Assembly (NCBI RefSeq): GCF_000310185.1 | Contig: NZ_AMXD01000010.1 | Coordinates: forward strand, 1-54,367 | From: Thauera aminoaromatica S2 | GTDB lineage: Bacteria; Pseudomonadota; Gammaproteobacteria; Burkholderiales; Rhodocyclaceae | Direction: 5' to 3' | Length of the DNA stretch: 54,367 bases | Shown: one piece after another, positions 8,125 to 24,673 of the stretch | How positions within the stretch are numbered: the stretch's first letter is position 1 | How the letters are laid out: each line of letters starts with the position of its first letter | Made by a program: the position numbers and the translations under genes | Notes under the pieces: model-generated | The model's input: only the letters and a program-made list of their open reading frames with translations | Database searches by the model: none | What the model was told of the DNA's origin: nothing

Positions 8125-8177
8125 TGTCAGGCGACACCGTAAATTGACCCCCTAGCGACACGAGGAACTGACCCCCT
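8125..8177 (+). repeat. Left terminal inverted repeat of IS21 copy 1
   Basis: Imperfect match to the reverse complement of 10274-10326. Both ends open TGTCA(G/A)GCGACAC and contain two copies of an ACCCCCT motif, matching the multiple transposase-binding repeats of IS21 ends. Confidence 0.85.
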
Positions 8178-8197
8178 CGTTCGCGAGGAGGCCATCA

Positions 8198-9478: not shown

Positions 9479-10266
9479 TGATCGATGCCGACCGACTCGA
9501 CGAACTGCTCACCCGGCTGCGGCTCACGGCGATCCGCGACCAGCTCGACAGCCTGCTCGACGAAGCCAGCCGGGCGCAGATGACACTGCGCGAAGCGCTG
9601 CTCTTCCTGGCCGAGCGCGAGGTCGCCCGGCGCGACACCCGACGCATCCAGATGGGCATGAAGCTCGCCCGTTTCCCGTGCGTGCGCACGCTCGAAGGCT
9701 TCGACTTCGACGCGCAGCCCTCGATCGATCCAGGGCAGATCCGGGATCTGTCCTCCGGTCGCTGGATCGGGCACGGTCAGGCCCTGCTGCTGCTCGGTCC
9801 GCCGGGCGTAGGCAAGACGCACCTGGCGGTCGCCCTCGGGCGCGAAGCGGTGGATCGCGGCTACACGGTGCTCTTCACCTCGGCAGCGGCGCTGATGGCC
9901 GGGCTCACGAAGGCGCACGCCGACGGACGGCTCGAGGAGAAGCTGCTGCAGCTCTCCAAGCCCAAGCTGCTGATCATCGATGAGCTGGGCTACCTGCCGC
10001 TCGAGCCGGCCGCTGCGCACCTGTTCTTCCAGCTGGTGTCGCGACGCTACGAGCGGGCCAGCATGCTGATCACCAGCAACCGGCCCGTTGGCGAGTGGGG
10101 GCAGGTGTTCGGCGACGCGGTGGCCGCTACCGCCATCCTCGATCGGCTGCTGCATCACAGCCAGGTCATCACAATTAGGGGCGACAGCTACCGGCTGCGC
10201 GACAAGCGCCGCAGCGGCCTTCTGCAGAAGGCCGCTGCCCCCACCCCGATCACGTCGGAGAGTTGA
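9478..10266 (+). CDS. istB: IS21 helper ATPase IstB (copy 1)
   Basis: Predicted 262 residues from ATG at 9478, which overlaps the istA stop. It is an AAA+ ATPase with Walker A GPPGVGKTHLAVAL and Walker B LLIIDELGYLPLE, and arginine-rich sensor region ITSNRPVGEWGQVF. It assembles on target DNA and stimulates IstA strand transfer. The 3' end of the gene contains a perfect 28-bp palindrome (10211-10238). Confidence 0.94.
   Translation: MIDADRLDELLTRLRLTAIRDQLDSLLDEASRAQMTLREALLFLAEREVARRDTRRIQMGMKLARFPCVRTLEGFDFDAQPSIDPGQIRDLSSGRWIGHGQALLLLGPPGVGKTHLAVALGREAVDRGYTVLFTSAAALMAGLTKAHADGRLEEKLLQLSKPKLLIIDELGYLPLEPAAAHLFFQLVSRRYERASMLITSNRPVGEWGQVFGDAVAATAILDRLLHHSQVITIRGDSYRLRDKRRSGLLQKAAAPTPITSES
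10211..10238. repeat. Perfect 28-bp palindrome inside the 3' end of istB copy 1
   Basis: Two 14-base arms (GCAGCGGCCTTCTG and its exact complement) meet without a loop. A comparable hairpin occurs at the same place in the second istB, see 23019-23050. Confidence 0.8.
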
Positions 10267-10273
10267 TTAACCC

Positions 10274-10326
10274 AGGGGGTCAATTCCAGATGTCGTCAGG
10301 GGGTTAAATCTTCGTGTCGCTTGACA
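10274..10326 (-). repeat. Right terminal inverted repeat of IS21 copy 1
   Basis: Reverse complement begins TGTCAAGCGACACGAAG and carries two ACCCCCT motifs at the same spacing as the left end. Confidence 0.85.
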
Positions 10327-10440
10327 CCCCCATCGCGAGCTTCAAGTCTTCTTCGGCACCAAGGTGTAGAAACGATCTCTTATCCAGAAACATACTGCAA
10401 CAAGATCCGATTGCATACCCTGCATGGGCACAAACCTCAC

Positions 10441-11334
10441 ATGCAACGCATGAACGCAACACTCGCGAATCCTCTCCTTCCTCCGCCCGTGCGCATCGCA
10501 CTCGCGCTCATGGCAGCCGGCGCCATGAGCGCGTGCGCGCCGTCCGGGCTCGAAGCGCGCCGGACCGAAGCGCGGAGCCTCGCCGCGCATGCAGGCTGGG
10601 AGCGTGTCGCGATCGACAGCGGACGCTTCGTGCTGATCGCTCACCGCCCCCATCCCGTGCAGCGCGTGGACACGCTCAGTGTCTATATCGAGGGTGACGG
10701 GCTGGCCTGGCTGAGTCGCTCGGAGCCATCGCGCGACCCCACGCCGCTCGATCCGGTTGCCCTGGGCCTCGCGTTGCGTCAACCCTCGGGGGCCGCGGTA
10801 CATCTGGCCCGACCCTGCCAATTCACCCTCGACCCCGAGCGCCGCAACTGCAGCAAGCAATACTGGACCTCCCATCGCTTTGCCGGCGAGGTCGTGGATT
10901 CGATGAGCCGCGCGATCGATCGCCTCAAGGCGGATCAGGGTGCGCAAGGGCTGGAACTGGTGGGGTATTCGGGCGGGGGGGCGATCGCGACGCTGCTCGC
11001 CGCGCGCCGCGGCGATGTCGAACGTCTGATAACCGTCGCCGGCAACCTCGACCCTGCGGCCTGGACACGCCTGCACCGGATCACCCCGCTCGAAGGATCG
11101 CTGGATCCGGTCGATGTGGCGCCCGCGCTCTCGAAGCTGGAGCAGATCCATCTCGCGGGGGCGAAGGATCGCGAACTGCCCGCTGAGCTCGCCGAAGGAT
11201 GGCTGCGCCGCTTGCGCACCCCCAGCGCGGCCCGCCTGCAAGTGGTTCCCGACTTCGACCATCACTGCTGCTGGGTCGAGGCCTGGCCGACGCTCTACCC
11301 GGATCCGGCACCCCGCCCCGACCCGGCGCGCTGA
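10441..11334 (+). CDS. Alpha/beta-hydrolase lipoprotein, unknown substrate
   Basis: Predicted 297 residues from ATG at 10441 (a second ATG at 10450 is equally good). The N-terminus has a lipoprotein signal: hydrophobic ALALMAAGAM followed by the lipobox MSAC. The fold signature is the nucleophile elbow LVGYSGGGAIATLL (G-Y-S-G-G). A late DFDHHCCWVEAWP block could supply the catalytic His. The family is not one I can name. The start lies 114 bp past the IS21 end, and the interval 10334-10440 is AT-richer than its surroundings and may hold the promoter. Its 3' end overlaps the convergent nucleotidyltransferase gene by 40 bp. Confidence 0.72.
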   Translation: MQRMNATLANPLLPPPVRIALALMAAGAMSACAPSGLEARRTEARSLAAHAGWERVAIDSGRFVLIAHRPHPVQRVDTLSVYIEGDGLAWLSRSEPSRDPTPLDPVALGLALRQPSGAAVHLARPCQFTLDPERRNCSKQYWTSHRFAGEVVDSMSRAIDRLKADQGAQGLELVGYSGGGAIATLLAARRGDVERLITVAGNLDPAAWTRLHRITPLEGSLDPVDVAPALSKLEQIHLAGAKDRELPAELAEGWLRRLRTPSAARLQVVPDFDHHCCWVEAWPTLYPDPAPRPDPAR

Positions 11335-12167
11335 GCCTCGTTTGGTCGCGTGCGCACCGACTCGTCGGCGGCGAGCGCTCGACGGCCCTCGACGGCCAGG
11401 AACCGGAGTTCCCCGAGCAGGGTCTCGAGCATCGCCACCGCCGCCGGGTAGTCCCCCGCAGCCGCGCAAGAGAAGAGCTGCGCGATCCGCTGCTCGTAGT
11501 GCGCCGGACGCTGCGGCAGGCGGGCGATGACCAGGCTGCCCCCCTTCACCAGAACCGGATACACCCCATTCACCGCAAAGACGAGGAGGTTGGCGAAGAA
11601 GACGAAGCCCGAGCACAGCCCGACGAGGTATTGAAGATCCAGCCGACGGGAGATCTTCGCCGCATGTGTGACGGTGATTTCGGCCTGCTGGAGGAAGGTA
11701 TCGACGAGCGCGGCCCTGAGCGCGACCGGGAAAGGCGTGGCGGCGGCGCGCAGGCGCTCCAGGTGTCCGTCGGGGTCGCTGCACACGATCAGATGGACGA
11801 CATGGCTGATCAGCCCGGTGCTCAAGTCGCCATGCGGAAAGAGCTGCCGGATCGACCAGGTGAATGCGCCCTCCCGCGCCTGCCCGATCTCGCGCTCGAT
11901 GGCCAGGAGATCCTTCTGGAAGATCTCGAATCGATGCGTACCCAGCCTCCCCGACACGAATCCCGCAGGATCCCTGAGCTCGCAAACCCCGGCGCACGCG
12001 CGAAGCGCGTCGAGGATCTCCCGCGCATCGACCCGTTCGCCGCCACGCCGGAACAGCACCAGATCGAAATCCGAAGCCTCGGAAGCGATCCGCAGCCCGC
12101 GCGAGCCGCCGATGCCAACCCCGACGACCCGATCGAGCCCCCCCAGCGCGCGGATCAGCTCATCCAT
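11295..12167 (-). CDS. Nucleotidyltransferase-fold (MNT/DUF4037-like) protein
   Basis: Predicted 290 residues. The N-terminus carries the polymerase-beta-like signature GVGIGGSRGLRIASEASDFDLVLF: a Gly-Ser pair followed about 13 residues later by DxD (here DFD), the metal-binding pair. The rest is helical, with a hydrophobic stretch YLVGLCSGFVFFANLLVFAVNG near residues 180-205. This layout is seen in DUF4037 and aminoglycoside-nucleotidyltransferase relatives, whose targets vary. Nothing in the sequence identifies the substrate. It converges on, and overlaps, the lipoprotein gene. Confidence 0.65.
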   Translation of the reverse strand: MDELIRALGGLDRVVGVGIGGSRGLRIASEASDFDLVLFRRGGERVDAREILDALRACAGVCELRDPAGFVSGRLGTHRFEIFQKDLLAIEREIGQAREGAFTWSIRQLFPHGDLSTGLISHVVHLIVCSDPDGHLERLRAAATPFPVALRAALVDTFLQQAEITVTHAAKISRRLDLQYLVGLCSGFVFFANLLVFAVNGVYPVLVKGGSLVIARLPQRPAHYEQRIAQLFSCAAAGDYPAAVAMLETLLGELRFLAVEGRRALAADESVRTRPNEAQRAGSGRGAGSG

Positions 12168-12202
12168 GCCCGAGGCCTCCGCCGGTCCCTGTCATGCCCG
12201 GC

Positions 12203-12718
12203 TCAATCCAGCCCGCTCGCCCGCAAGCCGCTGGTGATGCCCTTTAGCGAGCCGGCCACCTTCACCTGCTGCCTGCCGGCGTTGCCGTAGAACTCGAGGT
12301 TGAGCACGCGGCCGGCCTTCAGTGCCTCGATCATGCCCGCGTCGAGCGGCACCGTGGCGATGCAGCCCTGCGCGACACAGGTCAGCGGTGTCATGGCGAA
12401 GCCGTTCTTGCCATCGACGTCGCCCCGGATGCCGTTGGGCAGGTGAATGCCGAGCGGCACGACCACACTCATGCCGACCCCGCCGCCCTGGGGCGGACGG
12501 CTGATGTTGAAGCGCACCGAGCGCTTGTCCCCCTCGCCGAAGGAATGCACCTGCACCAGCGCACAGGCCTTGCTCGCACCGGAAAGCGCCTGGCATTCGT
12601 AGACCCAGTCGCCGAAACGCTCCCCCTGCGCGACCTGCGCGCGCAACATGGAGGGGGCGAGCAAGAGCGACAGGGACAGCAGCAGCGGAATCGCGCGCGG
12701 GGCTCGGGCCTTGAGCAT
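12203..12718 (-). CDS. Invasion-associated locus B (IalB) family periplasmic protein
   Basis: Predicted 171 residues from ATG at 12718, preceded by AGAGGAG. A cleavable signal peptide (IPLLLSLSLLLAPSMLRAQ) is followed by FGDWVYECQ, two Cys pairs (CQALSGASKAC and CVAQGC) and the VVVPLGIHLPNGIRGDVDG block typical of IalB proteins. In Bartonella the name-giving protein affects erythrocyte invasion; in environmental bacteria the role is unknown. It lies downstream of tctA on the same strand, 144 bp away. Confidence 0.8.
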   Translation of the reverse strand: MLKARAPRAIPLLLSLSLLLAPSMLRAQVAQGERFGDWVYECQALSGASKACALVQVHSFGEGDKRSVRFNISRPPQGGGVGMSVVVPLGIHLPNGIRGDVDGKNGFAMTPLTCVAQGCIATVPLDAGMIEALKAGRVLNLEFYGNAGRQQVKVAGSLKGITSGLRASGLD

Positions 12719-12862
12719 TGGACAGCTCCTCTGGTCGGGGTGAAAGCGTGCTTTCATTCTTACCGAAGCTCGCGGCCACTGTACAGCACATCCGGCAGCC
12801 CGGCCGCCAGCGCCAGGCCACGTGCGACGCGCTTCCCGGCGGCCGGCAGCGGGCACGTCGCC

Positions 12863-14350
12863 CTACGCGGCCCTTGCGCTGCGCATCGACCGGCAGACGG
12901 CGACGGCGAGCAGCACGAAGACCGCGCCGAGCGCCGCGAGGGCGATCGGGCTGGAGACGAAGATCGCAAAGTCGCCCTGCGAAATTGCCAGCGCGCGGCG
13001 GAAGTTGTCCTCGACCAGCGGCCCGAGGACGAAGCCGATGAGCACGGGTGCCAGATGCACCCCCGATCGCCTCATCCCGTAGGCCACCAGGCCGATGGCG
13101 AGGGCCGCCCAGACGTCGAAGGCACTGCCGCGCACACCGAAGGTCGCCACCGCGATCAGCACGAGGACGAGTGGATAGAGTCGCTGGGGCGGCAGCCGCA
13201 GGATGCGAACCCAGACCCCCACCAGCGGAACGTTGAGCACGAGCAGCAGCAGGTTGCCGATCACGAAGCTCGCCATCAGCCCCCAGAAGAGCTCCGGATT
13301 CTCGACCGCCAGCAGCGGGCTGGGCACCACCCCATGGGCCGACATCGCGCCGAGCATGAGAGCCATGGTTGCGCTGCCGGGGATGCCCAGCGCCAGCGTG
13401 GGCACGAAAGCCGTCTGCGCCGCCGCGTTGTTGGCCGCCTCGGGGGCCGCCAGCCCGGCGATCGCGCCGCGGCCGAAGCACTCCGGGCGAGCAGAAAGAC
13501 GACGCTCGAGCGCATACGCGGCGATCGACGCCAGGGTGGGTCCGGTGCCCGGCAAGGCACCAAACAATCCGCCCAGCACGCCCCCGCGCAGCACCGGCCC
13601 TGCTGCACGGCGCCACGCCTTCCAGCGCGGGAGCGCGCTGCGCTCGCCAATCCCGCCACGCACCACAGGCAAGGCGCCGAACATCGACAGCATCACCTCC
13701 GAAACGCCGAAGAGCCCCATGGCGAGCACCACCAGCGGAATGCCGTCGCGCAGTTCCGTCAGCCCGAGGGTGAAACGGGCCACGCCGGTCTGGGCGTCGG
13801 TACCGACCATCGCGAGGCCGACCCCGGCGAGCATCGCCACCATGCCCGCGGCCAGACGCCCGCGGCCCACGGCGGCCGTGCAGACCAGTCCGAAGATCAT
13901 GATCGCGAAGTATTCGGCCGGCCCGAGCATGAACGCGAGCCCGGCGAGCGGGGCGGCCATGGCGAGCATCATGCCGATGCCCACGACCGCGCCGCCGAAG
14001 GACGCTCCCGCACTCAGGATCAGCGCCTCGCGGGCACGCCCCGCGCGCGCCATCGGGTGACCGTCGAGACATGAAACCGCGGAAGCGGGCGTTCCCGGCA
14101 CGTTGAGCAGGATCGCCGCGATCGCCCCGCCGTACTCGGAGCCGTAATAGACCCCCGCCAACAGCACCAGCGCCGCGGTCGGCGACAAGGCATGCGTGAA
14201 TGGCAACAGCATTGCGACCGCGGCCAGCGAGCTGACCCCGGGCAACACGCCGACCAGGGTTCCGAGCGCCACCCCGATCAGGCAGAACCAGAGATTGCCC
14301 GGCGACAGCGCGACCTCGAACCCCGCCATCAGGCCGCTCAAGGCATCCAC
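12863..14350 (-). CDS. tctA: Tripartite tricarboxylate transporter large permease TctA
   Basis: Predicted 495 residues from GTG at 14350, which overlaps the tctB stop by 13 bp. It is a polytopic inner-membrane protein with about ten to twelve hydrophobic segments and the two TctA signatures: LVGVLPGVSSLAAVAMLLPFT with YYGSEYGGAIAAILLNVPGTPAS, and LFGALPGTGPTLAS with AAPEAANNAAAQTAFVPTLALGIPGSATMA. It would import a carboxylate delivered by the periplasmic TctC-type protein. The gene order tctB-tctA with a divergent tctC supports a complete transporter. Confidence 0.93.
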   Translation of the reverse strand: MDALSGLMAGFEVALSPGNLWFCLIGVALGTLVGVLPGVSSLAAVAMLLPFTHALSPTAALVLLAGVYYGSEYGGAIAAILLNVPGTPASAVSCLDGHPMARAGRAREALILSAGASFGGAVVGIGMMLAMAAPLAGLAFMLGPAEYFAIMIFGLVCTAAVGRGRLAAGMVAMLAGVGLAMVGTDAQTGVARFTLGLTELRDGIPLVVLAMGLFGVSEVMLSMFGALPVVRGGIGERSALPRWKAWRRAAGPVLRGGVLGGLFGALPGTGPTLASIAAYALERRLSARPECFGRGAIAGLAAPEAANNAAAQTAFVPTLALGIPGSATMALMLGAMSAHGVVPSPLLAVENPELFWGLMASFVIGNLLLLVLNVPLVGVWVRILRLPPQRLYPLVLVLIAVATFGVRGSAFDVWAALAIGLVAYGMRRSGVHLAPVLIGFVLGPLVEDNFRRALAISQGDFAIFVSSPIALAALGAVFVLLAVAVCRSMRSARAA

Positions 14351-14874
14351 GACACCCCCGCAAAAGGATTCCTGAAACTCGCCGCGGGGAGCTCCAGCCC
14401 GACGCCGAACATCGCTGCCACCAGGCCCGCCAGCACTACGGCCTGCAGGAGCTTCCCACGCCGCTCCCAGCGCGCATCCCCAGCGCTCGCAAGCAGCGCA
14501 GCCGCGAAGGCGGCCGGCACATAACCCAGCACGGGCGCGAGCGAGGCGAAACCCGCCAGTCCGGCGACCGCCGCCCACACGCCGCGCAGACCCGCGTCGT
14601 CCCTCTCGCGCGGGGTGGAGGAATCGTCCGCCGACATGGACCATGGCCGCAAGCACGCCAGGGCTGCGGCGATGAGCAGCGCCGCCCCCGCGAGCACGGG
14701 GAACGCCCCGGGCCCGAGGCGTCGCAAGGAGCCCAGGCCCAGCGCGGCGCCCCCGAGCACGAGCCACGCACCGAGGCCCGAGAGCGCAAGCAGCACCAGC
14801 GGCCACAGGCGCGCTTGACGATCCGGCCCCTGCCCCCGCACGCGGCGGTCCTGCGTCGGAGTCATGGCCGGCAC
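14338..14874 (-). CDS. tctB: Tripartite tricarboxylate transporter small permease TctB
   Basis: Predicted 178 residues with four hydrophobic segments (LWPLVLLALSGLGAWLVLGG, AFPVLAGAALLIAAALACL, AAVAGLAGFASLAPVLGYVP, LLQAVVLAGLVAAMFGVGL) and the LGxGSLRRLGPGAFPVLAG motif common in TctB. It overlaps tctA and is divergently transcribed from tctC across a 79-bp gap. TctB proteins are poorly conserved, so the identification leans on topology and context. Confidence 0.85.
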   Translation of the reverse strand: MPAMTPTQDRRVRGQGPDRQARLWPLVLLALSGLGAWLVLGGAALGLGSLRRLGPGAFPVLAGAALLIAAALACLRPWSMSADDSSTPRERDDAGLRGVWAAVAGLAGFASLAPVLGYVPAAFAAALLASAGDARWERRGKLLQAVVLAGLVAAMFGVGLELPAASFRNPFAGVSWMP

Positions 14875-14953
14875 GCCCCCGACGGTGGCGCGGGGGGCCG
14901 CATGGCTCTAGAGTTCGACTCTGCGGTCATCCACTTCCTCCCGAGCGTGATTC

Positions 14954-15931
14954 ATGAACCGACGACATTTCATCGGCGCCCTCGCCGGCCTCGCGGCAGC
15001 GCGCGCCCGAGCCGGAGAAGGAAACGGCGTCCGGATGATACCGGAGCGGCCGACCCTCCTCGTCGCGGTCGCCGCCGGTGGCGGCCCCGATTCGGTCGCG
15101 CGTGCGATCGCTGGGCATCTCGCCGACCGGCACGGCATCCATGCACGCATCGTCAACCTCCCGGACGCCAACGGCGAGCGGGCCCTGGCGGATTTTCTCA
15201 CCCTGCCGGCAGACGGCAGCACCTGGCTGATCGCGGCCGACAGCCTGATCGTGGTGAATCCCCGGCTCTACCCGCGCGAGTCCGCCGACCCGCTGCACGG
15301 TCTTGCACCGGTCGCCCAGGTCGGCAGCAATTTCTTCTTTCTCGCGGTCGGGGCCGAGGATCCGATCCGGAGCATGGCCGAGCTCGTGCTCGAGGCGCGG
15401 GCGGCGGAGCGCCCACTGAACTACGCGAGCGGCGGCATCGGCAGCATGCACCATCTCCTCATGGCCGACCTGGCGGCACGCCTCGGACTGCGGCTGAACC
15501 ACGTTCCCTACAAGGGCGGCGGATCCGCCGCGACCGGTCTCGCGCGCGGCGACGTGCGAGTCGCGTTCGCCGGCGCCTCCGCCCTCCCGCTCGTGCGGGC
15601 GGGCAAGCTGCGGCTGCTCGCAGTCGCGGCGCCGCAACGCTCGCCGCGTTTTCCGGATCTGCCCAGCCTCGCCGAGGTGGCGCCGGGTTTCGACGGCACG
15701 CTCTGGTTCGGCTGGTACGGCCATGCGGGCACGCCGGCACCGATCCGGGACGCGATGCGGGGACTGCTGCAGGAGGCAATGGCCAGTCCGCAAACGAGCG
15801 CCGCACTCGACCGCCAGCACGGCGGGATTTCCCCCAGCTTCACTTCCGGGCCGGCCTTCGACGCGCTGATCGAGCGCGAACGGGAGCGCTACGCCCGGCT
15901 GATTTCCCTCCTTCCGGAACAGACGCGATGA
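14954..15931 (+). CDS. tctC: Tripartite tricarboxylate transporter substrate-binding protein (TctC/Bug family)
   Basis: Predicted 325 residues. The N-terminus MNRRHFIGALAGLAAARARA looks like a twin-arginine or short Sec signal. The mature part follows the Bug fold: LLVAVAAGGGPDSVARAIAGHL, the LNYASGGIGSMHHLLMADLAARLGLRLNHVPYKGGG ligand-site block, and PDLPSLAEVAPGFDG. Bug proteins bind small carboxylates, so the likely cargo is a carboxylate or carboxyl-bearing compound. Unusually, its stop codon overlaps the start of a methyltransferase (ATGA at 15928-15931). Confidence 0.9.
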   Translation: MNRRHFIGALAGLAAARARAGEGNGVRMIPERPTLLVAVAAGGGPDSVARAIAGHLADRHGIHARIVNLPDANGERALADFLTLPADGSTWLIAADSLIVVNPRLYPRESADPLHGLAPVAQVGSNFFFLAVGAEDPIRSMAELVLEARAAERPLNYASGGIGSMHHLLMADLAARLGLRLNHVPYKGGGSAATGLARGDVRVAFAGASALPLVRAGKLRLLAVAAPQRSPRFPDLPSLAEVAPGFDGTLWFGWYGHAGTPAPIRDAMRGLLQEAMASPQTSAALDRQHGGISPSFTSGPAFDALIERERERYARLISLLPEQTR

Positions 15932-16842
15932 GCCATGCACAGGCCCCCCGCCCGCTCGCGCCCGCAGGCACCGGTCCGCTCGCCGAACCTGTGCTCGAAT
16001 CGGCTCCCTTTGCCCTCGAGATCTCGCGCTTCGCCTGTCGCTGCGGCGCGCAAGGGGATTCCTGCCAGCCCTACCACGGCTTCTGGCAGTACCTTCGCCT
16101 GCTCGGGCTGGGAAAGACGATGAGCGGCTTCAGCGCCGAATTCGTCGCCGCGATCCGGCAGGCCGCCCAGACCCATCTCGGCCCCTCGTTTCGCATCCTG
16201 ATCAGCGGCTGCGCCGACTATTCCGCCTACGCCCATGTGCTTGCCGGCTGCGCCGGGCTGTCGGCGCAACCGCGCGTGACCGCGCTCGACCTCTGCGCGA
16301 CCCCGCTGATCCTGAGTCGCTGGTATGCACGCCGGCACGGCGGCGACCTCGCTGCGGTCTGCTCGGACATCCTGGACCATCGCCACCCGGGAGGCTACGA
16401 GCTGATCCTCACCAGCAGCTTCCTGGGCTACTTTCCCCCCGCCCGGCGCGCGGAGCTGTTCTCGCGCTACGCGGCGCTGCTCGCGCCGGGCGGTCGCCTG
16501 ATCTTCACCACCCGGCTGCGTCCCGGCGCGGAAGACCAGCTCGTACCCTTCGGGCCGGACCAGAAGGAAGCGCTCGTGCGCACCGTCGTCGACTCGCTGA
16601 CGGAGCTTTCCGGCCGCGGGCTGGACCGGAGGGAAGCCGCGCAGCTCGCCGCCGCTTACGCCGACCTTTGCGCCTCGTATCCGGTCAATGGCGACGCGAG
16701 CCTGCGCCGGCTCGCCGAAGCCGCGGGCCTGCTCTGGCTGGACTGCGACCGGCGGCGCTCCGAAGCAGCCCGGCCCGGGGTGACCGGGCCGACAGTCGGC
16801 GCAGCGGAATACCTCTTCGTTACTCTGGGACGTCCCGCCTGA
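15928..16842 (+). CDS. SAM-dependent methyltransferase coupled to TctC
   Basis: Predicted 304 residues from ATG at 15928, overlapping the tctC stop. A Rossmann-type methyltransferase core is visible: FRILISGCADYSAYAHVLAGCA (motif I, with a less usual SGCAD loop), VTALDLCATPLILSRWYA (acidic ribose-binding Asp), a middle AVCSDILDH and LLAPGGRLIFTTRLRPG. The N-terminal FACRCGAQGDSCQPY has three Cys and could be a metal or substrate site. The coupling to a solute-binding protein suggests the imported compound or its product is methylated, which is inference. It converges with the ATP-grasp gene only 18 bp away. Confidence 0.75.
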   Translation: MSHAQAPRPLAPAGTGPLAEPVLESAPFALEISRFACRCGAQGDSCQPYHGFWQYLRLLGLGKTMSGFSAEFVAAIRQAAQTHLGPSFRILISGCADYSAYAHVLAGCAGLSAQPRVTALDLCATPLILSRWYARRHGGDLAAVCSDILDHRHPGGYELILTSSFLGYFPPARRAELFSRYAALLAPGGRLIFTTRLRPGAEDQLVPFGPDQKEALVRTVVDSLTELSGRGLDRREAAQLAAAYADLCASYPVNGDASLRRLAEAAGLLWLDCDRRRSEAARPGVTGPTVGAAEYLFVTLGRPA

Positions 16843-16860
16843 GCACGCGGGCAAGGCCCC

Positions 16861-18645
16861 TCACCGGCGCAGGTGCGGCTCGATCATGGGCCGGATCGCA
16901 GCGAGTGCGCCGCGTTCGGCCGCGCTCATCGCCGTCTCGTCGGCGACCCGAAGGCTGTCGAGCACGTCGCTCGGGAGACCCAGCCGCAGGATGTCGGGCG
17001 CCGACATCAGGCACGCCGCGGAGCCGACATCGGCCCGGCACAACAGGGCCTGCGCCGCCGCCAGCGCGTCCTCGAACGGCATGCTTACCCGAGCTCCGCG
17101 CAGGACGAGGCCATGACGCGACGACACGCCATCGACCTCGCCGTGCTGCAGCAGCCGCGCCGAAAGGCCCGCGTGCCAGTCCTCGCGGTCCGGACAGACG
17201 ACGAGGTGGACCGGGATGCGTCCGTCGCCTCCGACGAGCTCGCGCACCACCGCATCGAGCACGCCCGCGTGGGAATTGCCCCCCATCTGCGGTTGGCCGT
17301 TGACCTCGCAGATCGCCCCGCCCGCCTCCAGCCAGGATCTGGAGACATCCTCGATGATCAGATCCACGCCGGCCAGATCCAGCCGCAACGCCATCGCGGC
17401 GTCCACCGCGAGCTGCAGATTCGCCGGATGGACGTCGCCGAGCGCACAGGGGCGGTTTTCCCCACCGGCATTGATGTTGTCGCGCCGCCGCAAGCGAATG
17501 TACTCGCCGGCTGCGGGCACCGATGCGGGCCCCATGCCTCGGCGCGCCAGCAGATCGAGCGCCTCCGCGTCCAGGCTCAGCAGGGGAGCCCCCGCGCGCT
17601 GCGCGCGCCGCCTGTGGATCTCGTCCTCCAGGCGCCGCTCCACGAGAGTGGCCACAGCGGACACGCCATCGCCCACCACGCCCCCCGCCACCCTGCGCAT
17701 CACGCGGACCACCCTGCCCTGGAAGACGGTCAGGCGGTGCGTGTAGCCCTCGACATGGCGCTCGACGAGGATCGTCCGCGACAGGGCGCTGGCCGCGTCA
17801 TACGCGATGCGGACCATCGCATCGTCGGACAGCCCGGCCTGCACCCCCGCCCCCTGCTCCTGGTCCGCAGGCTTGACCACTACGGGGTAGCCCAGCGCAC
17901 GGGCGGCCTCGACCGCGCCTTCCGGCGAGCGCACGACCACCTGCTGCGGCACCGGGAGGCCCGCGGCACGGAGAACTTCTGCGGTATGCACCTTGTTGCG
18001 GGCGATCCCGAGGCCGATGCCGGACGTCCGGTCGGTGATCGTGCTCCTCATCCAGCGCGCCTTCCGCCCCTGACCGAGCACCAGTACATCATGCAGGAGG
18101 CGCCCCACAGGGATCCCGGCGCGGTAAGCGGCAAGTGCGATGTTGATCGGGTTGATGCCGGGGATCGCATGCGCGCCGAGCATGCGATCCAGCTCTTCCA
18201 GCGACTCCTGCGAGCTGCGCCCGTCCTTGCTCCCGGCCTGCCCGCCGGTCGCGCGTCGATTCACCTCGGCCACCACCCAACGCAACGCACGCTCGGTCGC
18301 CGCAGGCTGGTCCGACGGCAGCGCCACCCTGAAGACGCGCACATCCGCCACGGTCCGGATCAGGGTACGATGGCTTCTCCACGACACCGGGATTCCCGCT
18401 CGTCGCTGCAACGCGCCGATGCAGCGAAGGATGCAGTCGATCAGGGACTCGACGCCCGAGGCGCCCGCCGCCCGCTCCCCGCCTGTCGACGCTTCGTCGG
18501 CGAACGCCGCCAGCATCTCCTCGACGATGCCGGCACGCCCCTCGTCCGTCAACACGAGTTCTCCGGCGAGTGCGCCCTGTTGCAAACCGAAGGCGGCTCC
18601 GCGCAGCCATGTGAAGCGGGTGCCCACCCGAACCAATTCGACCAT
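16861..18645 (-). CDS. Cyanophycin synthetase-like ATP-grasp ligase with degenerate Mur half (paralogue 2)
   Basis: Predicted 594 residues; AGGGGAG precedes ATG by a few bases. The N-domain occupies about 1-180. The ATP-grasp domain (about 185-465) shows LGQGRKARWMRSTITDRTS, LGYPVVVKPADQEQGAGV, TILVERHVEGYTHRLTV, GGVVGDGVSAVATLV, the SVPAAGEYIRLRRRDNINAGGEN block, DVHPANLQLA, LDLAGVDLIIED and ICEVNGQPQMGG. As in paralogue 1, GDGRIPVHLVV is followed by CPDREDWHAG instead of the Mur P-loop, and the protein stops about 120 residues later. The usual NxDPRRG motif is replaced by RRLEDEIHRRR, so acceptor specificity may differ. It starts 45 bp after the end of paralogue 3 and is probably in its operon. 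Confidence 0.84.
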   Translation of the reverse strand: MVELVRVGTRFTWLRGAAFGLQQGALAGELVLTDEGRAGIVEEMLAAFADEASTGGERAAGASGVESLIDCILRCIGALQRRAGIPVSWRSHRTLIRTVADVRVFRVALPSDQPAATERALRWVVAEVNRRATGGQAGSKDGRSSQESLEELDRMLGAHAIPGINPINIALAAYRAGIPVGRLLHDVLVLGQGRKARWMRSTITDRTSGIGLGIARNKVHTAEVLRAAGLPVPQQVVVRSPEGAVEAARALGYPVVVKPADQEQGAGVQAGLSDDAMVRIAYDAASALSRTILVERHVEGYTHRLTVFQGRVVRVMRRVAGGVVGDGVSAVATLVERRLEDEIHRRRAQRAGAPLLSLDAEALDLLARRGMGPASVPAAGEYIRLRRRDNINAGGENRPCALGDVHPANLQLAVDAAMALRLDLAGVDLIIEDVSRSWLEAGGAICEVNGQPQMGGNSHAGVLDAVVRELVGGDGRIPVHLVVCPDREDWHAGLSARLLQHGEVDGVSSRHGLVLRGARVSMPFEDALAAAQALLCRADVGSAACLMSAPDILRLGLPSDVLDSLRVADETAMSAAERGALAAIRPMIEPHLRR

Positions 18646-18690
18646 GATCTCCCCTTGCCGTCCGATGGAATCCTCACCCGCCCCGGCGGT

Positions 18691-20664
18691 TCAAGACGCA
18701 GTCCCGCTGGCGTCCCAGGCGCGGCACAGGGCGATCAGCCCGGCCACCTCCGCATCCGCGGCCTGCCGCGCTGGCGAACCGGCCGTCCGGATGTCGCCGT
18801 CGATCACGACGACGCGGTCGACCCGATCCAGCGGGATCCCCGTCCGCAGCAGCTCGAGCGTCTGCACGACAAGGACCAGCGCGCCCACCTCGGCGCGCAG
18901 CGTCAAGGCACGCACCCTTGCATGCAGCCCATCGACCGCCAGGCCGAAGGGTTGGCCGTCGCCGCCCAGGGTACGCACGTCACTGCTCAGGACCGCGGCC
19001 ATGCCGGCCTGGAGCAAGGTCCGCCAGCGCGCTGCAGCCGCCTCCCAGGCGGCCGCCCCGCCCACGAATACCTCGACGGGAATCCGCCCACGCCCATCGA
19101 CCAGGCGGAACAGGTATTCCTCGACGTAGCGCCGCGATATTTCGCCACCGCCCAGCAGGGGGGCGAAATTCACCTCGTTGAGGATGGCGCCGTTGGCATG
19201 CCATGGCGCGGTGATGTCGGGGCTGATCATGTCCACCCCGGCAACCTCCAGGCCGAAGAGGCGTGCGGCGGCAATCGCGGCACGCACGTTCTCGGGATGC
19301 AGCGCATGGGTGACTTCCTCATCCACGCCTCCCGAGGCCGTGGTCTCGATACGACGCAAGGCGACGAACCGGCCGGCACCCGGCACGTCCTCCGGCCCCA
19401 GGCCCTGGCGCGCGAGCATCTCGAGCGCGCTGTCGTCCAGCGCGCAAAGCGGCGCGCGCTTCCACGGTGGCAAACCCATCCGACGCGCGCACTCGGCATC
19501 GACCAGGCCCCCGATCGAAGTCCTGCCATTCCCGTACACGCCGGCCGGGAGCCGCCTCACGGCATACAGCAGACGTCCCGCAGCAACGAAGATCCGATGG
19601 CAGACCCCCGGCGCCTGTCGCTCCACCAGAACCCGCTTGCCCGGCGAGCATTCACGAGCCGTCGTGTAAGCCCGCGCCACTCCCTCGTCATCGCCCACAT
19701 CCACGCTCACCCCTTCGCCGCGATCCCGATCGACGGGCTTGACGACCACCGGATAACCCAGGCTGCGGGCTGCCGCGCGCGCTTCTTCCGCCGTCATGAC
19801 GAGCCGGTTCACCGGCGCCGGCAGTCCGGCCGCACGCAACAGTTCGGACGCCATCCATTTGTCGTGCGTCCAGCGCATGCCGAAGACCGAGTCGCCATCG
19901 GTCGTGCTGCGCTCGATACGCCTCGCCCTGCTGCCCCAGCCGAGCTGATACACGCCCCTTCCAAGGGGCCGGAAGGGAATATCCAGCCGATAGGCTGCGC
20001 GCAAGACCTCGAGGGTCGACTTTCCCGCGGGCATCCGCTTTCCATGGGGCTGCAGAAGCTCGTCTCCGATGGCCACGAAGACACGCTCGCGGTCCTGCGG
20101 GCTGCCCGGATCCGCGCCCTGTGCAAGCTGTGCGATGCGGAATGCGATCCCGACCACCTCCATGCACGCCGTAGCGGAGACGAACTCGGGTCCCGCACAC
20201 AGGAACGCCGCCCGCCACCGCCGCCGATGTTCGTCGACCGGAGCGCAGTCGATGAGCTCGAAGGCGTCGAACACCGGCACGCGGACCAACTGCAGGAACA
20301 GCCGCGCCAGACGCAGCACCTGCTGCAGCCAGTACCGGGCCGTGTCTGCGTCTTCGCACCCCTCGGACGGCCTCGTCCCGAGCGGGGCGTCCTCGCCCAG
20401 CAAGGCCATCCAGGCGCCCAGACGGTTTGTGGCGGGCGCGATCGGCGGTGCGAACTCGATCTCGAAGCGGGTCTGCAACTGACGCGGTCTCGACCAGTGG
20501 CGGCGCGCCCCTTGCGCCCGACCGCCCTCGTGCGCCCAATCGTGGCGCTCCAGAACCGCCTCGACCGCTTCGCGCTGCACCTTGCCTTGTTCGCTCCGCG
20601 GGATGCGGTCGACCCAGATCACGTCGTGCAGGGCATGGCGCCCCAAGGCTGCGCGGACATGGGC
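18691..20664 (-). CDS. 3' part of disrupted AMP-ligase/ATP-grasp fusion: CphA-like ATP-grasp (paralogue 3)
   Basis: The open frame continues from the IS21 insertion point to the stop at 18691 (about 657 residues; first start-like codon is TTG at 20646). Its first 35 residues, RHALHDVIWVDRIPRSEQGK and following, are not CphA: they are the C-terminal A10-type end of an AMP-forming ligase, including its catalytic Lys. After a basic linker comes the CphA-like N-domain (FEIEFAPPIAPATNRLGAWM), then ATP-grasp: [95 protein letters not shown]. The Mur remnant GRGRIPVEVFVGGAAAWE again has no P-loop. No convincing ribosome site lies near the TTG, so expression of this part alone is doubtful. Confidence 0.82.
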   Translation of the reverse strand, partial: AHVRAALGRHALHDVIWVDRIPRSEQGKVQREAVEAVLERHDWAHEGGRAQGARRHWSRPRQLQTRFEIEFAPPIAPATNRLGAWMALLGEDAPLGTRPSEGCEDADTARYWLQQVLRLARLFLQLVRVPVFDAFELIDCAPVDEHRRRWRAAFLCAGPEFVSATACMEVVGIAFRIAQLAQGADPGSPQDRERVFVAIGDELLQPHGKRMPAGKSTLEVLRAAYRLDIPFRPLGRGVYQLGWGSRARRIERSTTDGDSVFGMRWTHDKWMASELLRAAGLPAPVNRLVMTAEEARAAARSLGYPVVVKPVDRDRGEGVSVDVGDDEGVARAYTTARECSPGKRVLVERQAPGVCHRIFVAAGRLLYAVRRLPAGVYGNGRTSIGGLVDAECARRMGLPPWKRAPLCALDDSALEMLARQGLGPEDVPGAGRFVALRRIETTASGGVDEEVTHALHPENVRAAIAAARLFGLEVAGVDMISPDITAPWHANGAILNEVNFAPLLGGGEISRRYVEEYLFRLVDGRGRIPVEVFVGGAAAWEAAAARWRTLLQAGMAAVLSSDVRTLGGDGQPFGLAVDGLHARVRALTLRAEVGALVLVVQTLELLRTGIPLDRVDRVVVIDGDIRTAGSPARQAADAEVAGLIALCRAWDASGTAS
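20660..20664 (+). repeat. Target-site duplication TGGGC, left copy (IS21 copy 2)
   Basis: The same five bases recur at 23148-23152. Both copies lie in the same codon phase of the flanking minus-strand gene (GCC-CA), so deleting the element plus one copy restores the frame. Confidence 0.82.
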
Positions 20665-20792
20665 GACGTGGCCGGCGACAATTAACCTGACCGGTCGACG
20701 ACAACTATCCTGGCCGGTTGGATCTGCAGCCGGGAAGGTCCGGAAGCGAGGGATAGAGTGCTCTTCTGACGACAGGCGTTGGGAGGCGCTCG

Positions 20793-22289
20793 GTGCCCGG
20801 CAAGAAGATCACGGACCAACAAGTGCGCAAATACAAGGAAGCAAGAAGGCAGGCGACGCAGCAGATCGCGGCGGCCCGGATGGGCATCAGCGTGCGCTCA
20901 GCACGGCGCATCGAGCAGGCTGACGGGTTGCCGTCGCAGCGCGGACCGAGGACATGGCGGACGCGCGCCGATCCGTTGGCGGACGTCTGGGAGCAGGAGC
21001 TGGTGCCCTTGCTCGAGCGCGAACCCGGGCTGCAGGGCCGAACCCTGCTCGAGGAGTTGCAGCGCCGTCACGGTGAGGTGTTCGGCGATGGGGTGCTGCG
21101 CACCCTGCAGCGGCGGATCCGCATGTGGCGCGCCGAGCACGGACACGAGAAGGAGGTGTTCTTCTCGCAAGCCAATCCGCCGGGCCGTTTGGCGCTGTCG
21201 GACTTCACCGTGTGTGACGAACTCAGGATCACGGTGGGCGGCGAACACTTCGCGCATCGCCTATACCAGTTCGCGCTGGCGTACTCGGGCTGGCGCCATG
21301 CTGAACTCGTGTGCGGCGGCGAGAGCTTCGCCGCCCTGGCGCAGGGTCTGCAGAATGCCCTGTGGGCCCTGGGTGGGGTGCCCGAAGAACACCGTACCGA
21401 CAGCCTGTCGGCCGCCTTCAACAACCTGGCCGAAGCGGAAACGCTCACGCGCCGCTACGAAGATCTGTGCCGGCACTATGGCCTGCGTCCGAGCCGGAAC
21501 AATCTGGGCCAGTCGCACGAGAACGGCGCCATTGAATCGCGCCAAGGCAGCCTCAAGGGCGCGCTCGAGCAGGCGCTGCTGCTGCGTGGGCACCGCGAGT
21601 TCGCCACCACAGCCGACTATCAGCGGTTCGTCGCAGAGGTCGTCACACGCCTGAACCGGCGCATCCAGACGCGGCTGGCCGAAGAGCGCAGCCAGCTCGC
21701 TGAGCTCCCCATGCGCCGGACCAGCGAGTACGAGGAGATCGAGGCGCGCGTGACCAAGTTCAGCACCGTCAGCATCCGCCGCGTGCTCTACAGCGTGCCC
21801 TCGCGCCTGATCGGCCATCGGCTCCAGTTTCGCCTCTACCCCGAGCGCCTCGAGGGCTGGCTGGGCGGGGTGTGCGTGTTCGAGAGCGCGCGCGGAGCGG
21901 TGCCGGCAGGCAAGCGGCGCGGCAAGCAGCTCGACTACCGGCACTTGCTGCCCGCGCTCAAGCGCAAACCCGGCGCCTTTGCCCGTTGGGCGCTGCGCGA
22001 CGACATGTTCCCCCGCGCCGAGTACCGGCAGACCTGGGAGCGCTTGGTCGAGACCTTGCCCGAGCGCCAGGCCTGCAAGCTCATGGTGGGGCTGCTTGAT
22101 CTGGCCGCACGCGGCGCGTGCGAGGTCCAACTCGCGCAGATCCTCGGGGGTTTGCTGCAGGCGGGCACCTTGCCCGATCTCGAAGGACTCGAGGCGCGCT
22201 TTGCGCCGCGCCAGACGCCCATGCCGGCGGTCACTGTGTCGTTGCCCGCGCTGTCGGTCTACGACACGCTGTACGAGGTGGCGGCATGA
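20793..22289 (+). CDS. istA: IS21 transposase IstA (copy 2)
   Basis: Predicted 498 residues from GTG at 20793 with GGGAGG about 7 bp upstream. The N-terminal helix-turn-helix is QQIAAARMGISVRSARRIEQ. The integrase-like core has LSDFTVCDEL, EEHRTDSLSAAFNN and HENGAIESRQGSLK as the probable D-D-E positions, and the C-terminal part RRVLYSVPSRLIGHRLQFRLYPERLEGW matches the Mu-transposase-like beta domain. It overlaps istB (ATGA at 22286-22289). Confidence 0.93.
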   Translation: MPGKKITDQQVRKYKEARRQATQQIAAARMGISVRSARRIEQADGLPSQRGPRTWRTRADPLADVWEQELVPLLEREPGLQGRTLLEELQRRHGEVFGDGVLRTLQRRIRMWRAEHGHEKEVFFSQANPPGRLALSDFTVCDELRITVGGEHFAHRLYQFALAYSGWRHAELVCGGESFAALAQGLQNALWALGGVPEEHRTDSLSAAFNNLAEAETLTRRYEDLCRHYGLRPSRNNLGQSHENGAIESRQGSLKGALEQALLLRGHREFATTADYQRFVAEVVTRLNRRIQTRLAEERSQLAELPMRRTSEYEEIEARVTKFSTVSIRRVLYSVPSRLIGHRLQFRLYPERLEGWLGGVCVFESARGAVPAGKRRGKQLDYRHLLPALKRKPGAFARWALRDDMFPRAEYRQTWERLVETLPERQACKLMVGLLDLAARGACEVQLAQILGGLLQAGTLPDLEGLEARFAPRQTPMPAVTVSLPALSVYDTLYEVAA

Positions 22290-23083
22290 GCGTCATCGAG
22301 ACGGCGACGCTGCCCATGATGCTCACCGAGCTGCGGCTGCCCACCATCAAGCGGCTGTGGTCGGCGCTGGCCGAGCAGTCGAACCGCGAAGGCTGGCCGG
22401 CCGAGCGGTTTCTGGCCGCCCTGTGCGAGCACGAGATGCACGAGCGCGAGACGCGCCGCATCGACCGCCATCGAGCCGAGTCCGCCTTGCCGCCGGACAA
22501 GCGCCTGTCGGCCTTCGACTTCACGGCCGTGCCGACGGTCTCCAAGGCGCACGTCACCGCGCTGGCCGAGGGCGACAGCTGGCTCGAACAAGGCGCGAAC
22601 ATCCTGCTCTTCGGACCACCGGGTGTTGGCAAGACGCACCTGATCGCCAGTATCGGCCACGCCCTCATCGAACGTGGCTACCGCGTGCTCTTCACCCGCA
22701 CGAGCGATCTGGTGCAGCGCCTGCAGGCCGCCCGGCGCGATCTGCGCTTGCCGGCCGAGCTGGCCAAACTCGACCGCTTCGACCTGCTGATCTGCGACGA
22801 CTTCAGCTACGTCCGCCGCGACCAGGGCGAGACCTCGGTGCTCTTCGAGCTCATCGCCGAGCGCTACGAGCGCAGAAGCCTGGCCATCACTGCGAATCAG
22901 CCGTTCTCGGAGTGGGGCCACGTCTTTGCCGAACCGGCCATGACGCTGGCCACCGTCGACCGGCTCGTGCATCACGCCACGCTCTTCGAGATGAACGTGG
23001 AAAGCTTCCGCCGCCGCGTTGCTCAGAAGGGGCTCGCCCCTTCTGAGCAACGCACCCTCAACACCTCAAAGCCGAAAGGCTGA
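22286..23083 (+). CDS. istB: IS21 helper ATPase IstB (copy 2)
   Basis: Predicted 265 residues from ATG at 22286, overlapping the istA stop. It is an AAA+ ATPase with Walker A GPPGVGKTHLIASI and Walker B LLICDDFSYVRRD, then the ITANQPFSEWGHVF region typical of IstB. The last 20 codons include a 14-bp perfect inverted repeat (23019-23050). Confidence 0.94.
   Translation: MSVIETATLPMMLTELRLPTIKRLWSALAEQSNREGWPAERFLAALCEHEMHERETRRIDRHRAESALPPDKRLSAFDFTAVPTVSKAHVTALAEGDSWLEQGANILLFGPPGVGKTHLIASIGHALIERGYRVLFTRTSDLVQRLQAARRDLRLPAELAKLDRFDLLICDDFSYVRRDQGETSVLFELIAERYERRSLAITANQPFSEWGHVFAEPAMTLATVDRLVHHATLFEMNVESFRRRVAQKGLAPSEQRTLNTSKPKG
23019..23050. repeat. Perfect inverted repeat in the 3' end of istB copy 2
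   Basis: Arms TTGCTCAGAAGGGG and its complement flank the tetraloop CTCG. It lies within the coding sequence, about 35 bp before the stop, at the same position as the palindrome in istB copy 1. Confidence 0.8.
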
Positions 23084-24493
23084 ACCCCTCATGCCTCGCT
23101 TCCACCGGCCAGGATAATTGACGTCGACCGGCCAAGGTAATTGACGCTGGGCAGCGACGAGTTCATGCGCGCTCGGATGCGTTCCAGCTTCGGGAACCAC
23201 CAGCGCGACCGGGACATCCTGCAGCACGCGATGCCGCAGGGGCGTGGCCAGCGCATCGGCCACGCCCGGATGCCGCCGCAGGCACTGCTCGATCTCGGCT
23301 GGATGGAGATTCACGCCACCGACGATCATCATGTCGTCCATGCGCCCTCTGTGCACCAGCTGCCCGTCGGTCGTCAGATGGCCGATGTCCCCGGGATAGA
23401 ACCAGCCCTCCGCGAAGGCCTTGCGGTTCGCCTCCTCGTCACCGAGATAACCGTCGATGACCATCGGCGAGGCGATCCGCACCCGTCCGTCCACCCCTGC
23501 CGGGACCGGCTGCCCGCGCTCATCGACCACCTCGATGCGGATGCCGGGAAAAGGACGCCCCACGCCGCCGCTCGTCCGGTGAACCTCGTCCAGTCGAGTC
23601 AGGGTCGCGGTGTGGCTCTCGTTCGTCCCGTAGAAGACATGGATGCGGGGGGTCAAGCGTCGCCGGATCTCGTCGCGCAGCGCCATCGACACCGTCGAGC
23701 CCCCCACCATCAGCGCCTGCAGCCGGGCGAACGCGCCGGTCGCCTCCGCCGGAAGCCGACGCAGGAGGGTCTCGATGTGGCAGACCATGGCGTGGATCAC
23801 CGTCACCTCGCCCTCGGCGACTTCACGGCGAAGGTCCACGCGGCCGGGGGTGTCCAGGAAGATTCCCGCCCCGATCGCCATCGCCTCCAGGCAGCGCTGC
23901 TTCGCGGAATAGAAATGCATGCTCACCATGGAGCACAAGACGTCCTGCGCGCCATAGGGCAGCCAGCTCGGCCCCAGCCTCGAGCGCAGGCATTGCTGCC
24001 GGTGCGTGACCGGCATGATCTTGGGTCGCCCCGTGGAACCAGAGCCCGTCACATAGATCCACGGCCGATCCGCCACCTCGCGCGCCGGCTCGGGCGTCAT
24101 CGACGGCGGGCTTCTCTCGAGCATGGACCAGGCGAGGACCGGGAGCCCGCCGAGGTCCGCTCCAGTTCGACGACCGTCGTCGGCGAGCGCCCGACCAGCC
24201 CGCGTGAGCGCCAACAGTCGCCCACGCAACGCATCGGGCAGGGTGCGCGGGACACTCACCACCGTCGCCCCCCGATGAGCGACCGCCAAGGACGCCACCA
24301 GATGATCGAGGGGGTCGTCCAGACATAGCGCGAGCACGTCCCCTCGCGCCACTCCGGCGTTCGCCAGGCCCGCGGCCACCGAGCACACCCTCCGCCCCAA
24401 GGCCCCATAGCCGAGCACTTCATCGCCATGGCGCACGGCGAGGGCCTCCGGGCGACTCGAAGCCTGCTGCAGAAGCAGATCGACAACATTCAT
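23066..24493 (-). CDS. AMP-forming acyl/aryl-CoA ligase-type enzyme, 5' part of the disrupted fusion gene
   Basis: From ATG at 24493 the native sequence runs 448 codons to the insertion point at 23150, then continues through IS21 DNA to a chance stop at 23066. It is an ANL-superfamily adenylation domain: YVTGSGSTGRPKIMP (P-loop, residues about 148-162), FYGTNESH (about 287-294), GWFYPGDIGHLTTDGQLVHRGRMDDMMIVGGVNLHPAEIEQ (about 363-403). The C-terminal A10 Lys is missing; it is found on the other side of the element (IPRSEQGK), so this fragment should not complete catalysis. Domains of this type activate a carboxylate as an adenylate and pass it to CoA, a carrier protein or an amine. The substrate is unknown. 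It is divergent from the gene at 24674. Confidence 0.85.
   Translation of the reverse strand: MNVVDLLLQQASSRPEALAVRHGDEVLGYGALGRRVCSVAAGLANAGVARGDVLALCLDDPLDHLVASLAVAHRGATVVSVPRTLPDALRGRLLALTRAGRALADDGRRTGADLGGLPVLAWSMLERSPPSMTPEPAREVADRPWIYVTGSGSTGRPKIMPVTHRQQCLRSRLGPSWLPYGAQDVLCSMVSMHFYSAKQRCLEAMAIGAGIFLDTPGRVDLRREVAEGEVTVIHAMVCHIETLLRRLPAEATGAFARLQALMVGGSTVSMALRDEIRRRLTPRIHVFYGTNESHTATLTRLDEVHRTSGGVGRPFPGIRIEVVDERGQPVPAGVDGRVRIASPMVIDGYLGDEEANRKAFAEGWFYPGDIGHLTTDGQLVHRGRMDDMMIVGGVNLHPAEIEQCLRRHPGVADALATPLRHRVLQDVPVALVVPEAGTHPSAHELVAAQRQLPWPVDVNYPGRWKRGMRGSAFRL
23148..23152 (+). repeat. Target-site duplication TGGGC, right copy (IS21 copy 2)
   Basis: Matches 20660-20664 exactly and abuts the right end ...AATTGACGC of the element. 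Confidence 0.82.
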
Positions 24494-24673
24494 GTCCTGC
24501 GCGAATCCTTGAGCGGGAAAACAAGGCTGCGTGCGGCTCAGCCCGAGCGCCCGATCATATGCGCATTCCACCGGGTGGAGTGCCGCGACCGCCACCGCAG
24601 GCGACCCGTCGCGGCGGAGAGCCCGCAGCGCCACGCATGGTAGACTCGCGCCGCCTTCAGACACCCGACCTCG

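What the first reader, a model, noticed from the sequence alone, without database searches (positions are those of the whole stretch)
18691..24493. An AMP-ligase fused to a CphA-like ATP-grasp enzyme, split by an IS21 element
Seen: the 24493-to-23150 frame ends inside an adenylation domain, and the 20664-to-18691 frame begins with the missing A10 end (IPRSEQGK) and runs on without a stop into a CphA-like ATP-grasp domain. TGGGC occurs at both junctions in the same codon phase. Removing the 2483-bp element and one copy gives one 1104-codon frame reading ELVAA-HVRAALGRHALHDV. Known: ANL ligases activate carboxylates and CphA ATP-grasp domains join amino acids. Inferred: a bifunctional enzyme that activates a starter acid and extends it with amino acids. 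I know of no described family with this order.
Basis: partly seen in the sequence, partly recalled or inferred. Interest (0 to 1): 0.88.

Follow-up and report, generated by a model that had tools for sequence, protein, structure and literature searches.

The report
Fused ligase gene split by IS21
A bacterium carries a gene for an apparently undescribed two-part enzyme that probably activates an acid and then adds amino acids to it; a mobile element has broken this copy, but intact copies exist in other bacteria.

Summary
An IS21-family element (20669-23153, 2485 bp, duplication GCGACG) interrupts one minus-strand gene whose parts encode an ANL (AMP-forming) ligase and a cyanophycin-synthetase-like ATP-grasp ligase. 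With the flanks joined in a script, the empty site is one frame of 1103 residues that aligns across the junction without a gap to five uninterrupted fusions (1081-1105 aa, 38-53% identical) in other genomes. So the fusion is a real family; this copy is broken. Unfused, adjacent ligase and ATP-grasp genes of the same families also exist. The ATP-grasp half matches CphA's G domain but has lost the Mur-ligase P-loop. The gene lies in a 23.8-kb accessory island (absent at this locus in 11 of 11 same-genus genomes examined) with two more such ligases, methyltransferase-like genes, a hydrolase and an autotransporter. Related stand-alone ligases sit beside aKG-HExxH beta-hydroxylases and autotransporters more often than chance predicts (post hoc). 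Most likely the enzyme makes an acylated non-ribosomal peptide; substrates and product are unknown. I found no printed description of this domain order.

The parts
23160..24493 (-). ANL (AMP-forming) ligase part of the broken fusion gene, ATG at 24493 (start chosen by homology); lacks the A10 lysine end
   Evidence: Pfam AMP-binding 2.9e-42; 23147-24493 is 60% identical to residues 1-449 of the intact G027 fusion
23154..23159 (.). right copy of the target-site duplication GCGACG
20669..23153 (+). IS21-family element, 2485 bp, inverted ends about 84% alike over 50 bp
   Evidence: five complete copies of the same length in own genome; 87% identical over its whole length to elements annotated as ISAzo16 family on two Aromatoleum aromaticum EbN1 plasmids
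20793..22289 (+). istA transposase
   Evidence: NF033546 217.9 bits, cut-off 160
22286..23083 (+). istB helper ATPase
   Evidence: NF038214 273.8 bits, cut-off 200
20663..20668 (.). left copy of the target-site duplication GCGACG
18691..20668 (-). rest of the fusion gene: A10 end of the ligase, remnant of the CphA N domain, CphA-like ATP-grasp (G) domain, truncated Mur-ligase start without P-loop
16861..18645 (-). second CphA-like ATP-grasp ligase (594 aa), 45 bp downstream
823..2727 (-). third CphA-like ATP-grasp ligase (634 aa by my gene call)
2814..3614 (-). methyltransferase-like protein
   Evidence: weak NCBIfam methyltransferase matches, below cut-offs
3688..8013 (-). autotransporter (ESPR + beta-barrel); homologues lie beside relatives of these ligases in G322 and G843
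10489..11334 (+). alpha/beta hydrolase-like protein (Pfam matches below cut-off); homologue, 49% over 256 aa, beside ligase and autotransporter in G843
15928..16842 (+). methyltransferase-like protein (Pfam matches below cut-off); homologue, 34% over 169 aa, in the G434:C1 ligase cluster
827..24600 (.). accessory island between the Radical_SAM_N gene (2-826, ygiQ-like, name recalled) and the PGM-like and recJ-like genes (24674 onward; recJ name recalled)
   Evidence: the two flanks lie 1.2-3.6 kb apart in 11 of 11 same-genus genomes examined (of 17 others that matched); none of 13 island proteins found in the fetched stretches

Best explanation
The broken gene encodes a bifunctional amide-forming enzyme. 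Its N-terminal ANL domain would adenylate a carboxylic acid that is probably not an alpha-amino acid, and pass the acyl group to the amine of an amino acid. Its C-terminal CphA-type ATP-grasp domain would then phosphorylate the new C-terminal carboxylate and add one or more further amino acids. Neighbouring ATP-grasp ligases would extend the chain; hydroxylases, methyltransferases, epimerases or glycosyltransferases in such clusters would tailor it. Shown: one gene, domain order, intact homologues, conserved motifs, IS interruption, accessory island. Inferred: the reaction order, amide (not CoA) product, substrates and product. In this strain the ligase half is very probably dead (no A10 lysine); the ATP-grasp half might still be translated from an internal start.
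For: Five intact fusions of 1081-1105 aa, 38-53% identical, gap-free at the junction, with 179 invariant columns that include A10 K474, ATP-grasp K755 and E943/N945 (catalytic roles assigned from recalled family knowledge and the CphA alignments). Unfused adjacent pairs of the same two families in G559:C7 and L047. All five fused ligases, the window's and four unfused relatives form one clade against the ten other ANL ligases in the tree, support 100/98. No carrier-protein domain in the two fusions scanned with Pfam (G429, G559). In an NRPS alignment the Asp that anchors the alpha-amino group (recalled rule) is Tyr here. Precedents for separate enzymes: CysC (ANL amide synthetase) then CysD (ATP-grasp) in cystargolide (PMC11427300, passages); an ATP-grasp and then an amide bond synthetase in E-64 (PMC12568646, passages). 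aKG-HExxH peptide beta-hydroxylase genes stand beside such ATP-grasp ligases in 4 of 6 occurrences in 12 genomes.
Against: No substrate, product or activity is known. ANL domains may equally make acyl-CoA. G260's fusion does not group with the other fusions in the ATP-grasp tree (support there is weak), so fusion may have happened twice or been lost. The aKG-HExxH link comes mostly from stand-alone ATP-grasp relatives: of the six genomes with a fusion (the window's included) only G429 has one near its ligases, and none was found in this genome. The window's autotransporter is about 1 kb from the third ATP-grasp gene but about 10.7 kb from the fusion. Whether ordinary CphA loci have the same neighbours was not tested. 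The structure model of the ATP-grasp piece was poor (mean pLDDT 47).
Confidence: 0.6

Rival explanations
1. The ligases modify a protein: ligase and ATP-grasp decorate a large secreted surface protein (autotransporter, RTX or two-partner exoprotein) encoded next door, as RimK-type ATP-grasp enzymes add residues to proteins (recalled).
For: Autotransporters within 5 kb of an ATP-grasp relative in 3 of 10 occurrences in 12 genomes, p about 1e-5, post hoc (2 of 10 within 2 kb, p 2.6e-4). An RTX-repeat protein of 2611 aa beside the unfused pair in G559:C7, with secretion-like genes further on, a TPS-domain exoprotein beside G927's ATP-grasp, and an RTX/VWA protein plus Peptidase_C93 and LapD-type genes beside G260's fusion.
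Against: RTX matches are abundant in most of the genomes that have them, so those cases carry little weight. In 9 of the 12 genomes no PF03797 autotransporter lies near an ATP-grasp locus. The nearest characterised relatives, cyanophycin synthetases, act on a peptide polymer, not on folded proteins.
Confidence: 0.15
2. A CphA2-like polymerase with a primer-making head: the ANL domain makes an acylated primer and the ATP-grasp domain polymerises one building block into a storage or surface polymer.
For: The ATP-grasp part aligns with CphA over the end of the N domain, the G domain and the start of the M domain. CphA2 polymerises beta-Asp-Arg (PMC9262961, passages); PDB entries 7ta5 and 8fxh also match (that these are CphA2 is recalled).
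Against: Weaker match to 7ta5 and 8fxh than to the cyanophycin synthase entries; several different ligases and tailoring genes in the clusters fit a defined product better.
Confidence: 0.15
3. Two ordinary neighbouring genes, or a chance open frame, wrongly joined.
For: Separate ligase and ATP-grasp genes exist in G559:C7 and L047.
Against: Five intact fused frames in other genomes and a gap-free junction.
Confidence: 0.01

Closest known systems
Cyanophycin synthetase CphA1 (N-G-M domains)
   Same: ATP-grasp G domain alignable over its length, with remnants of the N domain and the first part of M (hhalign probability 100; PDB 7lgm E 1.9e-46)
   Different: No Mur-ligase P-loop, M domain truncated, no HxxEH in the remnant N region, ANL ligase fused in front
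CphA2 (polymerises beta-Asp-Arg dipeptides)
   Same: ATP-grasp part of similar size (about 600 aa), with the G domain as the only expected active ligase
   Different: Described as cyanobacterial (PMC9262961, passages); entries taken to be CphA2 match less well than CphA1; no ANL domain
Cystargolide CysC + CysD and E-64 pathway (ANL amide synthetase and ATP-grasp ligase)
   Same: Same pair of chemistries in one NRPS-free route (PMC11427300, PMC12568646, passages)
   Different: Separate proteins there; fused, with a CphA-type ATP-grasp domain, here
IS21 family, ISAzo16 group
   Same: istA/istB, aligned end to end with ISAzo16-family elements at 87% identity
   Different: Ordinary member

Membership tests
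ANL (AMP-forming) ligase | AMP-binding domain above Pfam cut-off, A3 motif | tested here: met
   145.3 bits, cut-off 29.9; GSGSTGRPK
ANL (AMP-forming) ligase | A10 lysine in the C-terminal subdomain | tested here: met
   K474 invariant in the joined frame and five homologues; absent from the broken ligase piece alone
NRPS adenylation module | carrier-protein domain after the A domain | tested here: not met
   No such Pfam match in the G429 and G559 fusions or the window pieces
ATP-grasp superfamily | Pfam ATP-grasp clan match above cut-off | tested here: met
   ATP-grasp_5 34.1 bits, cut-off 27.6; RimK 24.7, cut-off 21
Cyanophycin synthetase CphA1 | active Mur-ligase M domain with P-loop | tested here: not met
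   GTNGKTTT aligned to unrelated residues; no G.[NT]GKT or GKTT string in the window pieces or the five homologues (G027 has a GKT elsewhere)
Cyanophycin synthetase CphA1 | NCBIfam equivalog TIGR02068 above cut-off | tested here: not met
   202 bits, cut-off 850
CphA2 | polymerises beta-Asp-Arg | not testable with these tools
   No assay possible
IS21 | istA and istB, terminal inverted repeats, short target duplication | tested here: met

The most novel reading that the evidence does not exclude
A distinct non-ribosomal assembly logic: an ANL-ATP-grasp initiator enzyme loads a starter acid and the first amino acids, a series of CphA-derived ATP-grasp ligases extends it, and the acyl-peptide is beta-hydroxylated, methylated or glycosylated and displayed or exported together with a dedicated surface protein.
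Probability: 0.25. Interest if true: 0.8.

Novelty: new variant of a known kind. Interest (0 to 1): 0.6.

Why it matters
ANL amide synthetases and ATP-grasp ligases are of interest as biocatalysts and have been combined by using separate enzymes in sequence (PMC11427300 and PMC12568646, passages). A natural fusion that would couple the two steps, with intact homologues at hand, gives a testable single-chain catalyst. The clusters also point to a group of CphA-derived ligases, linked to peptide beta-hydroxylases and perhaps surface proteins, whose products are unknown.

Tried and rejected
Defence-system reading: no PADLOC match for 9 of 10 proteins given (ligase pieces, ATP-grasps, autotransporter, hydrolase, a 290-aa protein, two fusions); one weak match (mad2) to the methyltransferase-like protein. 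First ATP-grasp tree held three CphA rows that were wrong or misaligned (cphA_L008, L009, L022); it was rebuilt with seven checked CphA rows, and L047 and G1345_b were left out as long branches. In the ligase tree two of eleven chosen outgroup stretches (L034, L038) were dropped because they held stop codons in the frame taken. RTX association: not pursued, RTX matches too common. Self-trained gene calls went wrong on L115, L132 and L133; codon-position GC was used for these and six other loci (it gave nothing for L166). Rfam: no match in the window at gathering scores. The neighbour test left out G448, G676, G162 and G390, and ordinary CphA loci were not tested as a control.
Full report
WHAT IS THERE. 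The ligase piece (minus strand, ATG at 24493) matches Pfam AMP-binding at E 2.9e-42 and a truncated AMP-binding_C. The downstream piece (18691-20646) matches ATP-grasp families and, among NCBIfam models, cyanophycin synthetase best but far under cut-off. Between them lie istA and istB of an IS21 element.

THE ELEMENT. Its sequence occurs in five complete copies of 2485 bp in the own genome, the window's included, and is 87% identical, end to end, to elements annotated as ISAzo16 family on two Aromatoleum plasmids. All five copies share the ends TGGCCGGC and GCTGGGCA. In the window this sets the element at 20669-23153 and the duplication as GCGACG; the other four full copies have 6-7-bp duplications by my reading. 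The full copies match at 100% as rounded by the tool, and both gene halves are otherwise open, so the insertion looks recent (inference).

THE EMPTY SITE. With the flanks joined in a script the frame is 3312 nt, 1103 residues and one terminal stop. It aligns with five uninterrupted fusions: G027 52.7%, G429 51.1%, G260 40.3%, G559 39.2%, G1345 38.2% identity; the junction has no gap in any of them. The fusions were found in draws of 297 family genomes (G027, G260), 399 order genomes (G429, G559), 369 class genomes (none fused) and 398 phylum genomes (G1345). Draws overlap in part and used different queries and thresholds (ATP-grasp piece at 1e-30; G027 fusion at 1e-80; G260 fusion at 1e-70 twice), so these are not frequencies. 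Two fragments at contig ends (G390, G162) may be further fusions.

ANATOMY. The N-terminal about 475 residues are a complete ANL ligase with the A10 lysine. Then comes a stretch that hhalign aligns with the end of the CphA N domain, a full G domain, and the first part of the M domain in which the P-loop GTNGKTTT is replaced. HxxEH, the N-domain peptidase motif of CphA1 (PMC9262961, passages), is absent from that region; one HxxEH string in the G429 fusion lies in its ligase part. The position aligned to the NRPS aspartate that binds the alpha-amino group is Tyr ([quoted passage not shown] No carrier domain was seen in the two fusions scanned.

RELATIVES. Unfused adjacent pairs exist in G559:C7 (ATP-grasp then ligase, overlapping by a few bases) and L047, a gammaproteobacterial MAG. 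In the ligase tree the fused ligases, these partners, a second G559 ligase convergent to its fusion and an Undibacterium ligase (L033, no ATP-grasp detected in its stretch) form one clade with support 100/98 against nine other ANL ligases and one G434 ligase. In the ATP-grasp tree five fusions (window, G027, G429, G1345, G559) group at 99/97; G260's groups weakly with unfused ones. The two other window ligases fall in a second group, with single ATP-grasps of G434 and G027.

CONTEXT. Of 17 other same-genus genomes that hold the PGM-like gene I examined 11. In all 11 the ygiQ-like gene lies 1.2-3.6 kb from it (distances worked out); here the gap is 23.8 kb. None of 13 island proteins was found in the fetched stretches at 1e-10, and none of the 11 same-genus genomes listed matched the ATP-grasp at 1e-30. 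The island holds three CphA-like ligases, two methyltransferase-like genes, an autotransporter, a hydrolase-like gene, TctA- and TctC-type transporter genes and another IS21 element.

NEIGHBOUR STATISTICS. In 12 genomes with such ligases, 3 of 10 autotransporters lie within 5 kb of one (expected 0.04, p 1e-5; 2 of 10 within 2 kb, p 2.6e-4; 3 of 10 within 10 kb, p 5e-5), and 4 of 6 aKG-HExxH genes within 2 kb (expected 0.02, p 2e-9; 4 of 6 also within 5 and 10 kb). Both families were noticed first and tested afterwards, ligase positions were entered by hand from earlier calls, genome sizes are rounded, one genome is 79% complete, and ordinary CphA loci were not used as a control. For the fusions themselves the link is thin: of six genomes with a fusion, only G429 has a nearby aKG-HExxH gene and only the window's has a nearby autotransporter, next to the third ATP-grasp gene and about 10.7 kb from the fusion. 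The two proteins called TIGR04267 exceed its cut-off; PMC12636437 (passages) reports beta-hydroxylation of Gln by such enzymes and cites Asp for another. RTX neighbours were not tested further because RTX matches are too common.

READING. I take the fusion as an NRPS-free initiation-elongation enzyme, as CysC and CysD do in two proteins and the E-64 enzymes in the reverse order. The IS insertion should abolish the ligase half here. What is not known: acid, amino acids, chain length, amide against CoA chemistry, and any tie to the surface proteins.

NOVELTY. Both domains are known kinds; the fusion, and the group of M-domain-deficient CphA-like ligases with these neighbours, I did not find in print (searches; an open-licence library only; listings, plus passages of six papers). 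PMC2922099 (passages) describes other operons that combine ATP-grasp ligases with amino-acid-modifying enzymes.

Noticed in passing
window 8198-10266: A second, different IS21-family element (istA-like 8198-9478, istB 9478-10266) lies between the autotransporter and the hydrolase-like gene of the island.
   Followed up: partly
window 827-24600: The whole interval is missing from the ygiQ-recJ locus of 11 of 11 same-genus genomes examined.
   Followed up: yes
L116 (G162) 2-808: A fragment of the ATP-grasp half also lies beside recJ-like and PGM-like genes in another genus, so this locus may be a recurrent insertion site.
   Followed up: no
L130, L135, L165, L166: aKG-HExxH peptide beta-hydroxylase-type genes stand next to CphA-like ligases in four genomes.
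   Followed up: partly
L133 887-17999; L115 6771-19000; L163 12978-19499: Large secreted proteins beside ligase relatives: RTX-repeat protein with secretion-like genes (names recalled), RTX/VWA protein with Peptidase_C93 and LapD-type genes, TPS-domain exoprotein.
   Followed up: partly
L130 7047-10508: A CphA-like protein that keeps a Mur-ligase domain (Pfam) and its P-loop sits in the same cluster as the G429 fusion.
   Followed up: no
L033 7975-11503: In Undibacterium fentianense the related ligase stands beside a gamma-glutamyltranspeptidase gene, without a detected ATP-grasp.
   Followed up: no
window 39470-48697: A protein of about 3000 aa; the part scanned (39473-46000) has glycoside-hydrolase family 94 and glycoamylase-like domains, as in cyclic beta-glucan synthases (name recalled).
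   Followed up: no
L165 9595-11426: G716's ATP-grasp relative carries an in-frame TAG and its homology is split over two frames; it looks like a pseudogene.
   Followed up: no
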